From: Herpetosiphonaceae bacterium
Lineage (GTDB): Bacteria > Chloroflexota > Chloroflexia > Chloroflexales > Kallotenuaceae
Length of the DNA: 35,371 nt
Assembly (NCBI GenBank): GCA_036374795.1
Contig: DASUTC010000185.1
Location: forward strand, 1-35,371
Reading direction: 5' to 3'
The notes under the pieces were generated by a model. That model ran no database searches. It saw only the letters and a list, made by a program, of their open reading frames with translations, and was not told the origin of the DNA. Below, piece after piece: positions 13,071 through 29,337 of the stretch; the stretch's first letter is position 1; the number at the start of each line of letters is the position of its first letter. Position numbers and translations under genes: made by a program.

Positions 13071-13518
13071 TGCACGCCTGACCTTCCTCCTGCGTCAGGA
13101 CTCGCCGCAGGGCTGGCAGCGCCACCCGCACTGCATCCATCTCCGTGGGGCTCAACGCCTGCATCAGCGGCGCGAGTCGGCGCAGCGTGTACTCCTGCGC
13201 GTGCTCATAGTGCCGCCGACCCTCATCCGTCAGACACAAGAGATGCTGACGACGATCGTGGGGATCGGGCAGCCGCGCGATCCAGCCGCGCTCGACCAGC
13301 ATCTGTACCAGCTCGCTCATCGATTGGAGCGTCACACGGCGCTTTTTGGCGAGCACACTCAGCGTCAAGGGCGCAGAGGCAAGGTAGCTGAGCACGCGGA
13401 ACTGCGGCATGGTTGTTTCTTCGCCCGCCTCCCGCCGAACTTCCGCCGCCACGATCCGGCTGAGCAGCGGCAGCACGCCTAGCAGCTCCTGGGTCGCTTC
13501 TTCAATGGTCCAGGACAT
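13060..13518 (-). CDS. MarR-family transcriptional regulator
   Basis: 152 aa, standard MarR length. The winged helix-turn-helix spans ~35-100: MPQFRVLSYLA, LTLSVLAKKRRVTLQSMSEL (recognition helix), then the wing LPDPHDRRQHLLCLTDEGRR. Dimerisation helices lie at both ends. MarR proteins usually repress their own operon, here with the overlapping MFS exporter gene, until a small molecule binds. An inverted repeat overlaps the -10 of its promoter, as expected for autorepression. ATG 13518 has only a weak purine stretch (GGGGA) upstream. Confidence 0.93.
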   Translation of the reverse strand: MSWTIEEATQELLGVLPLLSRIVAAEVRREAGEETTMPQFRVLSYLASAPLTLSVLAKKRRVTLQSMSELVQMLVERGWIARLPDPHDRRQHLLCLTDEGRRHYEHAQEYTLRRLAPLMQALSPTEMDAVRVALPALRRVLTQEEGQACSGG

Positions 13519-13532
13519 AGCTGTATCCCCAA

Positions 13533-13575
13533 GTACCCTGATAGTAAGGATACCTGACCATACATATTATGTCAA
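13533..13575 (-). promoter_or_regulatory. marR-MFS promoter with candidate MarR operator
   Basis: On the minus strand a perfect -35 TTGACA (13575-13570) stands 17 bases from a -10 TATCCT (13552-13547). Overlapping and following the -10 is an inverted repeat, GTATCCT-N7-AGGGTAC (13553-13533), matching at six of seven arm positions. The ATG is 15 bases beyond the operator. A bound dimer would block RNA polymerase, which fits autoregulation by the MarR protein. Confidence 0.65.
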
Positions 13576-14088
13576 TGGCTACGACCGATATGCCGAGATC
13601 ATCGACGACGTATGCTGCCAGAGCTGCTGCGATTCGCGCACTTGACAGGCACATTGAAACATCATAAACTACTCCACGATTGACACACAAAGCTCTAGGC
13701 GACATATCATCACCACAGAATGCTCCGTAGCGCTGGCCTCCACGCCGATCGTTGCGGGTATGCCTTCCATCTTCCACTCCGCTCGATGAGCCAGGACGCT
13801 ACCCAGATCGTCTTGTTCGTCTCAATCCTCACGTTGCGTATCGCTTGGTCCGTAGTCTGCGTTGGTATGGTTAACGAAATGACCGGCCCCCTGTCGGTTA
13901 TGCCGCAGTTTGTTGCAGATCCGTTTGCCAGTGCGCTGTCAGGCGAGTGTTGAGTAGCCCACACAATCCTTGTGTCTGAGCTGGATCAGCATATGGCAAG
14001 GCCACACAGACTCCTTGATGATGAACCAGGTTGAGCAATTAATCTTGGAACCTGCCGGGCACCTGCTTGCGCTCACGGAGGAGCTATC
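13576..14088. other. 513-base stretch without a supported gene
   Basis: Several open frames of 68-91 codons cross this region on both strands, but none has a ribosome-binding site or a recognisable product. The A+T content is higher than in the flanks. Two plus-strand promoter-like pairs are visible: TTGACA at 13642 with TAAACT at 13665 (17-base spacer), and TTGACA at 13680 with TATCAT at 13705 (19-base spacer). Either could transcribe toward the LRR gene about 400 bases downstream or an unannotated small RNA. Confidence 0.4.
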
Positions 14089-14661
14089 ATGGCGTTGGAT
14101 TTGTCGCACATGCATTTGAGACAGCCGCCGACTTCGATCTGGCAATTACCTCAGCTGCGGACGCTCGATCTGGCTGGCAATCGCCTCAAGGTCTTACCCG
14201 ACTCGATCGCACAGTCGCTCCAGCTTGAATATTTAGATCTGTCCGGCAACGAGCTAACGGCGCTCCCCGACTCGATCGGCCAATTGACGCGGCTGCGCGT
14301 GCTCAACCTGTCGGGAAACCGGCTGACGGCCCTGCCCCGCTCGATCGGCCAGCTCGCGTGTCTCGAACACCTCGACCTCGCCGGGAATCGCCTCACCGTC
14401 CTCCCCGACTCCATCGGCCAGCTCGCGCGGCTTCAGCAATTGATCCTGCATCACAACCGGCTCACGGCCCTGCCACAGTCGCTACGGAAGCTGAGCGCGC
14501 TGACTCAGCTCTACCTGCACGGCAACGACCAGCTTGGCCTGCCGCTGGAGTTGCTTGGTCCGCGCTGGTATCAGGTACTCAACCCCAGGATGACGACCTT
14601 GCCCGCCAAGCCGAGCGAGATCCTCCACTATTATTTCTACGTCGGTCTGCCGATCAATTGA
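14089..14661 (+). CDS. Leucine-rich-repeat protein, probable truncated Roco protein
   Basis: 190 aa. Six 23-residue leucine-rich repeats of the bacterial type run from ~22 to 160, each with the frame LxxLxLxGNxLTxLPxSIxQL (for example LRVLNLSGNRLTALPRSIGQ). The repeats cap with GNDQLGLPLELLG and then KPSEILHYYFYV. In Roco proteins of Chloroflexota and cyanobacteria this 'P.EILDYYF' segment is the linker entering the Roc GTPase; here the protein ends six residues later, before any GTPase P-loop. So it is either a stand-alone LRR protein or the stump of a Roco gene. No Roc or COR sequence follows in any frame. ATG 14089 has GGAGG seven bases ahead. Confidence 0.8.
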   Translation: MALDLSHMHLRQPPTSIWQLPQLRTLDLAGNRLKVLPDSIAQSLQLEYLDLSGNELTALPDSIGQLTRLRVLNLSGNRLTALPRSIGQLACLEHLDLAGNRLTVLPDSIGQLARLQQLILHHNRLTALPQSLRKLSALTQLYLHGNDQLGLPLELLGPRWYQVLNPRMTTLPAKPSEILHYYFYVGLPIN

Positions 14662-14746
14662 CCTCGTGGGGTACGACCTACCTGACAGGCCATCGCACAA
14701 TGATCCTGCCAGCCTCCAGGCCAGGCCACGTGCGCTTAAATCGATA

Positions 14747-14775
14747 AAGGCCCTCACACCGCGTGCGAGGGCCTT
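14747..14775 (-). terminator. Rho-independent terminator after phenylalanine hydroxylase
   Basis: AAGGCCCTC and GAGGGCCTT form a nine-pair stem around an 11-base loop that can pair further (CAC/GTG). Read on the minus strand the stem ends in TTTATCGATTT, so it best serves the hydroxylase gene that stops at 14794. It may also stop plus-strand transcripts of the LRR gene, although the tail on that side is not U-rich. Confidence 0.7.
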
Positions 14776-14793
14776 CGTCGGATTCGACGGAAG

Positions 14794-15519
14794 CTACGCT
14801 AAGCCTTCCTGGCGGGCATACGCATCGATCACGTCGCGCCAATGCTGGAGCGAGTCGAGGATGAAATATTCGTCGTGGTAGCTATAGGCTGCCGATGGCG
14901 TCTTTGCGATGCGGTTGATGTCGACGGGATGCTTCGGCACCTCTGGCCGCAGCGCGTGCAGCAGCTCGCCCGGCGACGAGAGCAGACCGGCGCCGATGAC
15001 CTTCAGCTCGCCGTTCTCGCGCACAAAGCCAAACTCGATCGTAAACCACCACAGCCGCGCGATTGCCAACTGCTGCTCTTCCGTGCGCGCCTTCAGATAC
15101 ACCTCGCCGTAGCGCCGCGCAATATCGGCGAACTCAGGCAGCGTGAAGAAGGCGAGATGGCCGAAGTATTCGTGGAAGAGATCGGGCAGCGGCGTGAAAT
15201 CAAGCTCATCGGGCTTCCGAATATAGTCGGTGACGGGAAAGCGGCACGCGGCGATATGCTCGAACCACTCCGTCGGGCCAAGATACGCATTCTGCGCGTC
15301 GGCGAGCGTCCAGCCGGTAAAGCTATGAATCCGCTGCGCCATCACATCGCGGTCGGGCAGGCGGTTAAAATCAAGCGCTAGCTTGGGAAATCCCTCGAAG
15401 AACTCTCGACAGGCGACATCTCGGACTAGCTCCATTTGCCGGACGCAGAGCTTATGCCAAGTTTCGTGATCCTCTTCGGTGTAGGTCGGCGTGCTGACCA
15501 CGTTGTCGATCACGTCCAT
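14794..15519 (-). CDS. phhA: Phenylalanine 4-monooxygenase
   Basis: 241 aa, the short monomeric bacterial form. It hydroxylates phenylalanine to tyrosine with O2 and a tetrahydropterin. The iron-binding facial triad is visible as His116 and His121 in DLFHEYFGHLAFF and Glu162 in WWFTIEFGFV. The pterin/substrate region is PTEWFEHIAACRFPVTDYIR, and the C-terminus has the typical HDEYFILDSLQH stretch. ATG 15519 is preceded by AAAGGA at nine to ten bases. No pterin-recycling enzyme (PhhB) or tyrosine-degradation gene is adjacent. It is followed by a terminator at 14747-14775 and has its own promoter region with a palindrome, so it is probably expressed alone. Confidence 0.95.
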   Translation of the reverse strand: MDVIDNVVSTPTYTEEDHETWHKLCVRQMELVRDVACREFFEGFPKLALDFNRLPDRDVMAQRIHSFTGWTLADAQNAYLGPTEWFEHIAACRFPVTDYIRKPDELDFTPLPDLFHEYFGHLAFFTLPEFADIARRYGEVYLKARTEEQQLAIARLWWFTIEFGFVRENGELKVIGAGLLSSPGELLHALRPEVPKHPVDINRIAKTPSAAYSYHDEYFILDSLQHWRDVIDAYARQEGLA

Positions 15520-21666: not shown

Positions 21667-21825
21667 CTAGCCGCTCCACATGCCAGTATAGATCAACAAC
21701 ATCATGAACAGCGCGCCAACTACGCCGCCAACCGCGCCCACAAGCACCGACCGTCGCCAGTCCCGCGTGATCAGTGCGGCCACACCGCCGACAACGATCG
21801 CCAATAGCGGAATAATAACCCACAT
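21667..21825 (-). CDS. Small two-helix membrane protein
   Basis: 52 aa, found by hand translation. Sequence: MWVIIPLLAIVVGGVAALIT (helix 1), RDWRR (cytoplasmic turn), then SVLVGAVGGVVGALFMMLLI (helix 2) and YTGMWSG. ATG 21825 is preceded by AGAGG at five bases. The hairpin with a basic loop fits a small membrane protein of unknown role. It lies directly upstream of the GH13 lipoprotein gene on the same strand. It diverges from the dienelactone-hydrolase-like gene. I do not recognise a family. Confidence 0.7.
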   Translation of the reverse strand: MWVIIPLLAIVVGGVAALITRDWRRSVLVGAVGGVVGALFMMLLIYTGMWSG

Positions 21826-22049
21826 TGCAGCCTCTTCGATCGGGATCGAGCCAGCCGATCGCTCAGCCGACCGTCAGTATAGCGTATTGCGTCGGATACA
21901 ACGCAACGGCTCCTGCATCAAGGGATATGCCACTGGACGAGGCGGGAGCATCGCTGCGGCAGGCGACAGGATCGCGGCGGACGCAGAGCAGATGCGATCT
22001 CATGGACTTCTTTCTACGTACCTTAACGGTGACAGCAAAGGAGGAGGCC
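21826..22049. other. Divergent intergenic region
   Basis: Contains the promoters for the small membrane protein/GH13 unit and for the hydrolase. I see no convincing -35/-10 pair and no gene. Confidence 0.3.
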
Positions 22050-23048
22050 ATGCGTGACACGTTGAACGACATGCAGTTGTACTTGATCGACGAGTTTGTC
22101 GAAGCGTACCAGGAAGGGCACATGTCCCGCCGAGATGCCCTGCGCCGCATCGCAGCGATCACCGGCAGCCTGACGCTCGCGACATCGATCCTGGCTGCCT
22201 GTGGCGCAGTGGAGCCAACATCGAGCGGCGCAAGCCCACCCGCAAGTCAGCAGCCTGCGGCATCTGCCAGTCCTGCGGCATCTGCCAGTCCTGCGGCAAG
22301 TCAGCAGCCCACGTCATCGCCCGATCCCGCCGTCAGCGTTCCAGAAAACGATCCTGGTATTGAAGCTCGCATGGTTGAGTTTCCAGGCGAAGGCGCGACG
22401 CTGATGGGCTATCTCGCCAGGCCGACCGGCGAGGGACCCTTCCCGGTCATCCTGGTCTGCCACGAGAATCGCGGCCTGACCGATCATATCAAGGACGTGA
22501 CGCGCCGGGTGGCGAAAGCCGGATACGTTGGACTGGCGGTTGACCTGCTCTCACGACAGGGGGGCACGGCGGCGGTCGCCGACCCGGCCCAAATTCCTGG
22601 CGCGCTCGGCCAGGCCCCAGAGGGACAGCCGGTTCAGGATTTCCAAAGCGGCCTGCGCTACGCGCAGAGTCAGCCATTTGTAGACAAAGCGAAGGTGGGG
22701 ATGGTTGGCTTCTGCTACGGCGGCGGCGTAACCTGGCGAGTCGCGACCAAAACATCGGAGCTGCGGGCGGCAGTTCCGTTCTACGGGCCAGCGCCAGCCA
22801 TCGCCGACGTGCCGGGTATTCAGGCGGCAGTGCTGGCGATCTATGGCGAGCTGGATCAGCGAATCAATGCGGGCATTCCAGAGATCGAGGCGGCCATGCA
22901 GCAGAATAACAAAACCTTCGAGAAGCAGATCTATCCGGGCGCTAACCATGCCTTCCACAACGATACCGGTCGTAACTACAAGCCCGATGCCGCAAAGGAT
23001 GCCTGGGCTAAAACCGTAGCGTGGTTCGATCGATACGTCAAAGCGTAA
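22050..23048 (+). CDS. Dienelactone-hydrolase-family lipoprotein with Tat-like signal
   Basis: 332 aa alpha/beta hydrolase. The N-terminus (MSRRDALRRIAAITGSLTLA, residues 25-44) is Tat-like, and TSILAAC ends in a lipobox at Cys51, so the protein should be exported folded and lipid-anchored. A low-complexity Ser/Pro/Ala/Gln linker with perfect internal repeats (PAASAS units) spans ~55-95. The catalytic triad is Cys222 (GFCYGGG), Asp269 (YGELDQR) and His300 (GANHAF), with Glu139 in CHENRG as in true dienelactone hydrolase. The natural substrate is unknown; relatives act on dienelactones and assorted esters. ATG 22050 has AAAGGAGGAGG ahead; the longer open frame upstream lacks support. Confidence 0.93.
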   Translation: MRDTLNDMQLYLIDEFVEAYQEGHMSRRDALRRIAAITGSLTLATSILAACGAVEPTSSGASPPASQQPAASASPAASASPAASQQPTSSPDPAVSVPENDPGIEARMVEFPGEGATLMGYLARPTGEGPFPVILVCHENRGLTDHIKDVTRRVAKAGYVGLAVDLLSRQGGTAAVADPAQIPGALGQAPEGQPVQDFQSGLRYAQSQPFVDKAKVGMVGFCYGGGVTWRVATKTSELRAAVPFYGPAPAIADVPGIQAAVLAIYGELDQRINAGIPEIEAAMQQNNKTFEKQIYPGANHAFHNDTGRNYKPDAAKDAWAKTVAWFDRYVKA

Positions 23049-29040: not shown

Positions 29041-29323
29041 CCCGTTCGATCAAGTTCCAAGTTCCAAGTTTCAAGTTTCGAGTTCATCGAACTTTGAACA
29101 TTGAACTCGCCTTGTTCCCTTGTTCTTTTGTTCCCTTGTTCTTTGTTTGTCGTTGCAGGCCCTCACCCCGCTTCGCTCCGCTCAGCACCCCTTCCCCGCC
29201 CTCGCGGGTCCCGTTCCCGCTCGGTGTGCGCAGGCGAGGGGAGAAGCGGTGCCCGGTTCTTTTGTTCCCTTGTTCTTTTGTTCCTTTGTTCCCTTGTTCT
29301 TTTGTTCCTTTGTTCCTTTGTTC
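29041..29323 (-). repeat. Composite intergenic repeat, copy E (largest)
   Basis: Read on the minus strand it has three modules. Eight perfect tandem octamers (29323-29260; GAACAAAG, GAACAAAA and GAACAAGG types) come first. Next is a ~95-base G+C-rich core (29255-29160, with GGGGAAGGGG and GGTGAGGGCCTGC). A second block of four octamers follows (29141-29110), and then heptamers TCGAAAC, TTGAAAC, TTGGAAC and TTGGAAC (29081-29054). The heptamers end ~20 bases before the DppC-type start codon. Order and orientation match copy A. The block fills the 304 bases between two permease genes that would normally be adjacent. Frames here are repeat translations (GNKGTKEQ, LETWNLEL). Confidence 0.9.
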
Positions 29324-29337
29324 TCTCATCCCCAGTC

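What the first reader, a model, noticed from the sequence alone, without database searches (positions are those of the whole stretch)
14089..14661. LRR protein ends exactly where a Roc GTPase should begin
Six LRRs and the PSEILHYYF linker are those of bacterial Roco proteins (relatives of LRRK2), yet the gene stops before the GTPase P-loop. No Roc-COR piece follows. An LRR-only form could be a free scaffold or a decoy of full-length Roco proteins, or simply the remains of a deletion. The upstream out-of-frame NQVEQLIL stretch may be the original N-terminus.
Basis: partly seen in the sequence, partly recalled or inferred. Interest (0 to 1): 0.5.

Follow-up and report, generated by a model that had tools for sequence, protein, structure and literature searches.

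The report
Conserved LRR-only remnant of Roco protein
A small bacterial gene keeps only the leucine-rich repeats and the connecting helix of a much larger LRRK2-like (Roco) protein; a sister species has the same short gene beside the same neighbour, so it looks like a working stand-alone binding protein and not a fresh wreck.

Summary
ORF 14089-14661 encodes a half-repeat, six full LRRs and a linker that stops where a Roc GTPase would start; no Roco piece follows in the window. The linker is Roco-related: it matches the LRR-Roc linker of an LRR-Roc-COR-TIR protein in a congener (Z 13.8, 0 of 300 shuffles as good), though most other Roco linkers match weakly or not at all. It includes the segment at the place of the alpha0 hinge helix, modelled as a helix. 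It is no recent deletion: congener G001 has a 68%-identical short orthologue, one repeat longer, ending within a codon of the same place beside the same phhA-like gene, with conserved SD and start. Differences show purifying selection (pN/pS 0.34; linker 0.36). The own genome gave no COR domain and no second LRR_8 gene, so 'decoy of Rocos' is not supported there. NQVEQLIL upstream is not conserved. Best reading: an old Roco truncation kept as a free LRR binding module with its hinge helix; partner unknown. Modest interest.

The parts
14077..14083 (+). Shine-Dalgarno-like GGAGGAG, 5 nt before the ATG; GGAGG and its 7-nt distance to the ATG are kept in the congener
14089..14661 (+). LRR-only gene, 190 aa, ATG to TGA
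   Evidence: orthologue G001:C664
14089..14145 (+). N-terminal half-repeat (MALDLSHM...); aligns from residue 41 of the full Roco, whose residues 1-40 have no counterpart
14146..14559 (+). six full 23-residue LRRs (residues 20-157)
14536..14637 (+). end of the last LRR and Roco-type LRR-Roc linker (residues 150-183, GLPLELLGPRWYQVLNPRMTTLPAKPSEILHYYF)
   Evidence: Z 13.8 against the linker of the TIR-Roco G001:C726; alignments
14611..14643 (+). C-terminal helix (residues 175-185), at the place of the Roco alpha0 hinge helix
   Evidence: AlphaFold2 model; alpha0 as described in PMC11052575 (passages)
14638..14661 (+). unconserved last seven residues and stop, where the Roc domain would begin
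14743..14779 (.). strong hairpin between the convergent LRR and phhA-like genes, a possible shared terminator
   Evidence: z -5.3 (+) and -5.4 (-); the T-tract consensus scan found no terminator in 13500-14850, and the piece of G001 that I folded gave z +0.8
14794..15519 (-). neighbour: aromatic amino acid hydroxylase (phhA-like), also next to the short gene in G001

Best explanation
The gene is a stand-alone LRR protein that descends from a Roco protein by loss of the Roc-COR (and, judging from its nearest relative, TIR) part in an ancestor shared with the congener. The surviving piece is a complete unit: an LRR solenoid, its C-terminal end and the alpha0 segment that in Rocos hinges the LRR to the GTPase. 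Without the GTPase it most likely works as a soluble binding module (scaffold or adaptor) that grips a partner on the concave face, with the retained linker and helix closing the open end of the solenoid. Shown: relation of the linker to one Roco type, conserved short form, selection, no Roco found in the own genome. Inferred: descent by truncation and not the reverse, capping by the helix, protein binding, identity of any partner.
For: Linker relation to a full Roco (Z 13.8, 0 of 300 shuffles; G001 short form 11.7, 0 of 300). Orthologue with the same architecture in G001, next to the same gene. pN/pS 0.34 (bootstrap 0.26-0.44) over 190 codons, 0.36 (0.21-0.57) over the 40 codons from residue 151 on; differences by codon position 50/37/100. 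Conserved GGAGG and ATG. Coding-type GC3. Mean pLDDT 89 with a C-terminal helix. No COR-A match and no second LRR_8 gene in the own genome.
Against: Only this gene and one orthologue were found in 158 class genomes, so selection rests on one pairwise comparison, with dS near saturation (1.4). Of 23 Roco linkers only C726 matches strongly; 11 of 23 lie at Z 0.6 or below. A profile of Roco linkers did not tell the window's tail from LRR tails. No expression data; the only promoter-like site on the + strand in 13500-14850 lies about 420 nt upstream. The linker at residues 160-169 has pLDDT under 50, so the helix packing is not secured. G001's assembly is 80% complete.
Confidence: 0.68

Rival explanations
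1. Decoy or trans-regulator: the free LRR-alpha0 module competes with the LRR of full-length Roco proteins for ligand, or docks on their Roc-COR in trans.
For: The linker and alpha0, which in the CtRoco dimer are buried between LRR, Roc and COR-A (PMC11052575 passages), are retained and conserved. G001 carries both the short form and two full Rocos.
Against: The own genome has the short form but no Roco was found: no COR-A match at E <= 1, no LRR_8 match outside this gene, no match of a Roco linker-GTPase query at 1e-15.
Confidence: 0.1
2. Decaying leftover: a Roco gene lost its 3' part and the LRR fragment is drifting.
For: It lacks the catalytic core and the Roco N-terminal stretch, and is found in 2 of 4 genus genomes.
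Against: Open frame in both species, a difference of exactly one 23-residue repeat, conserved start region and purifying selection.
Confidence: 0.12
3. Split Roco: the LRR piece works with a separately encoded Ras-like GTPase (for instance the small GTPase on contig C279), as a two-gene version of a Roco or a SHOC2-like Ras scaffold.
For: The best Roc-model hit of the genome is a free small GTPase, 194 aa. SHOC2, an LRR-only Ras scaffold, heads the fold list (Z 27.5, rmsd 2.6, 172 residues).
Against: The GTPase gene lies on another contig, and the Roc model rang in all 14 control genomes too (6 over its cut-off). The SHOC2 match is tied with a Leptospira LRR protein (Z 26.6). No link between the two proteins is shown.
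Confidence: 0.08

Closest known systems
Roco proteins (LRR-Roc-COR; bacterial CtRoco, human LRRK2)
   Same: LRRs and a linker with the alpha0 segment before the Roc domain
   Different: no Roc, no COR, no effector domain
LRR-Roc-COR-TIR protein of the congener, G001:C726 (841 aa)
   Same: 49% identity over the shared part, QLYLHxNxQLGLPxExLGPxW...P..I..YYF
   Different: goes on into Roc, COR-A, COR-B and TIR; has about 40 residues before the first LRR part
Free bacterial LRR proteins (e.g. Leptospira LIC11098, 4u08)
   Same: same solenoid; 46% identity over 152 residues, rmsd 1.0 A
   Different: of 28 tails of other LRR ORFs compared, none matches the window's tail with Z above 2.9, against 13.8 for the C726 Roco linker
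SHOC2 (LRR-only scaffold of a Ras/PP1 complex)
   Same: fold, Z 27.5 over 172 residues; an LRR protein that works with a Ras-type GTPase without carrying one
   Different: a longer, human protein; no evidence of a shared partner; such folds match many LRR proteins

Membership tests
Roco proteins | Roc GTPase domain with P-loop | tested here: not met
   Pfam finds LRR-type models and no Roc in the protein; no remnant downstream
Roco proteins | COR domain | tested here: not met
Roco proteins | LRR-Roc linker / alpha0 segment (accessory, by homology) | tested here: met
   Z 13.8 with G001:C726; Z 2 to 3.5 with 8 more of the 23 Roco linkers, below 2 with 14; helix in model. The linker profile was inconclusive.
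LRR-only proteins | tandem LRRs as the only recognised domain | tested here: met
   the one non-LRR Pfam row (PF17126, 18.2 bits) is below its cut-off of 27
LRR effectors and other named LRR families in NCBIfam (XopAC, XopAE, XopL, SlrP, SspH2 and others) | score above NCBIfam curated cut-off | tested here: not met
   7 of 7 listed families below their cut-offs; the best, XopAC, 124 bits against 450

The most novel reading that the evidence does not exclude
A Roco receptor has been reduced to its sensing half plus hinge, and that half is maintained as an independent protein that acts in trans on a Ras-like GTPase other than Roco (a naturally split, SHOC2-like bacterial system).
Probability: 0.08. 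Interest if true: 0.6.

Novelty: new variant of a known kind. Interest (0 to 1): 0.33.

Why it matters
It gives a natural, selected example of the LRR-plus-alpha0 piece of a Roco living without its GTPase. That makes it possible to ask what the LRR and hinge of LRRK2-like proteins do by themselves, and suggests that Roco genes can turn into LRR-only genes. A review says very little is known about what Rocos do in bacteria and archaea (PMC6337361, passage). The scale is small: one genus, two genomes.

Tried and rejected
NQVEQLIL as an old N-terminus: no protein-level conservation in G001 (the upstream DNA aligns only with gaps that break the frame), and the first 45 residues of the C726 Roco gave no tblastn hit there at E <= 10.

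A profile test of the linker was inconclusive. Models of 23 Roco tails also score tails of other LRR ORFs, because LRR letters dominate; the window's tail without its LRR part scored 9.1 bits on the linker model, above the best of 200 shuffles (6.2) but below five of the other LRR tails (10.8 to 24.7). The 23 Roco controls, each left out in turn, scored 30.6 or more. I therefore relied on the pairwise test. There the window's three best of 51 targets are Roco linkers (13.8, 3.5, 3.3) and the fourth is an LRR-only tail (2.9); 11 of 23 Roco linkers lie at 0.6 or below. So the relation is firm to one Roco type and only suggestive to the family at large. The 28 comparison tails are of fetched ORFs with at least four LRR motifs and no recognised P-loop; not all are LRR-only proteins (the list takes in long multi-domain proteins, a GTPase gene that my P-loop pattern missed, L084, and the frameshifted L086).

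Searches that found no further short form: tail profile in 400 phylum genomes, 1 of 400, the own genome (G001 was evidently not in the sample); whole protein in 60 relatives (15 of 60 match at 1e-10) and 158 class genomes (8 of 158 at 1e-25). In one search I read the tails of the new loci L087-L089: two lack the linker, and L087 runs off its contig, so its end is unseen. Of the further hits I read only those that had become loci. Plasmids, whole protein: 138 records, each under 60% identity; I read 3 (a Vibrio LRR protein and a Streptomyces LRR-only protein without the linker, a Calothrix Roco). Plasmids, tail alone: none at E <= 0.1. Plasmids, Roco segment: 13 records, 7 read. Viral contigs: none (with two general LRR patterns). 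The genome-contig scan: four relatives; the nearest, in an Opitutia MAG, ends without the linker; other phyla were not searched beyond that.

An LRR ORF followed in another frame by a Roc-COR ORF on an Acaryochloris plasmid has LRRs of another type; not pursued. CtRoco was not among the 50 entries shown in the fold comparison; that says nothing either way. One weak LRR hit in G004 (same family) is a short LRR ORF without the linker.

Papers: passages only were seen of PMC4316618, PMC11052575 and PMC6337361; otherwise listings and starts of abstracts. None of the titles listed in those five searches is about LRR-only Roco derivatives in bacteria; that is no proof of absence.

Full report
What is there. 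The ORF at 14089-14661 is a real LRR gene: 190 aa, LRR_8 E 1.8e-38, GC3 0.80 like five neighbouring genes (0.74-0.83), a GGAGGAG motif 5 nt before the ATG. It holds a half-repeat and six full 23-residue LRRs, then 33 residues ending in KPSEILHYYFYVGLPIN. It sits between a MarR/MFS pair and, convergently, an aromatic amino acid hydroxylase followed by a dihydroorotate dehydrogenase. A strong hairpin lies between the two convergent stops (z about -5 on both strands). The piece of G001 that I folded there did no better than shuffles (z +0.8), though part of the stem is alignable.

Roco character of the linker. In the congener G001, contig C726 encodes an 841-aa protein with LRRs, Roc, COR-A, COR-B and TIR. 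Its linker reads QLYLHANAQLGLPDEILGPSW...ADPQTIIEYYFRSRGSRRPLNEAKLILVGRGSVGKTS. The window's tail aligns to it from the last LRR to YYF. Against 300 shuffles of the window's tail the score has Z 13.8 with 0 of 300 as good; the G001 short form gives 11.7, 0 of 300. Of 51 targets compared (23 Roco linkers, 28 tails of other LRR ORFs) the three best for the window are Roco, the fourth is an LRR-only tail; mean Z is 1.6 for Roco against 0.2 for the others, and the Roco mean leans on C726. A profile built from the same 23 linkers did not separate the window's tail from LRR tails. The published CtRoco work describes the alpha0 helix just before Roc as a conserved element and hinge, buried between LRR, Roc and COR-A in the dimer (PMC11052575, passages). 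The segment KPSEILHYYFY stands in the place of that helix by alignment, and AlphaFold models residues 175-185 as a helix (mean pLDDT 89 from a three-row alignment; block means 80 and 67 for residues 171-180 and 181-190; residues 160-169 below 50).

The short form is old. In 60 relatives and 158 class genomes one orthologue was found, G001:C664. It is 68% identical over aligned residues, one repeat longer, and ends ...PAKPGEILSHYFHRSYPAAM*. Divergence begins right after YYF/HYF. The last 27 residues and the stop of the hydroxylase lie just downstream in G001, 86% identical, where the contig ends (for that reason the search shows no match in G001). So the locus is the same on that side; upstream G001 has a histidine-kinase-like and a response-regulator-like gene instead of MarR (names inferred). 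In G002 and G003 the dehydrogenase and hydroxylase are adjacent as well, but no LRR gene is found there. G002 has two methyltransferase-like ORFs (name inferred) and then MarR. Selection: pS 0.64, pN 0.22, ratio 0.34, bootstrap 0.26-0.44; from residue 151 on 0.36, 0.21-0.57. The start region, TTGCGCTCAyGGAGG...ATGG, is alike.

No Roco at home. In the window's genome (7.75 Mb, 373 contigs, listed 100% complete, 4.9% contamination) COR-A has no match at E <= 1, LRR_8 matches only this gene at E <= 0.01, and a 143-aa Roco linker-GTPase query has no match at 1e-15 (16 of 400 phylum genomes match, the own genome not among them). The Roc model hits a free small GTPase of 194 aa and, below the cut-off, an IF-2-like protein (names inferred from the sequences). 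So a decoy role toward resident Rocos is not supported in this organism. It remains possible in G001, which holds two full Rocos.

Mechanism. What remains is a folded LRR unit with its Roco hinge. The likeliest use is binding a partner protein. The highest-ranked solved folds are SHOC2 (Z 27.5, 172 residues, rmsd 2.6) and a Leptospira LRR protein (4u08, Z 26.6, 152 residues, rmsd 1.0), which are tied; 957 of 987 chains reach Z 8, so with such a common fold this tells little about function. The SHOC2 parallel prompts the split-GTPase idea, which I rate low.

Verdict. Its Roco attribution stands for one Roco type. 'Decoy' and 'remains' do not fit the comparative data, and the upstream stretch is probably chance. 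The gene is a small, lineage-restricted, conserved Roco derivative.

Noticed in passing
29110-29144 and 29256-29324: Short tandem arrays of 8-base units (CCTTGTTC, 4 copies; GTTCCTTT, 8.5 copies); the open frames there are low-complexity.
   Followed up: no
22254-22298: Perfect 18-base tandem repeat, 2.5 copies, inside the 21825-23048 ORF, in a Ser/Pro/Ala-rich stretch.
   Followed up: no
L041:1132-3657 (G001:C726): LRR-Roc-COR protein with a C-terminal TIR domain in the congener, whereas a review places all prokaryotic Rocos known by 2019 in the simple LRR-Roc-COR group (PMC6337361, passage).
   Followed up: partly
L086:2355-4458: Acaryochloris plasmid with an LRR gene followed in another frame by a Roc-COR gene; a split or frameshifted Roco.
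   Followed up: partly
G000:C241:35358-36047: Second copy of the aromatic amino acid hydroxylase in the same genome, 53% identical.
   Followed up: no
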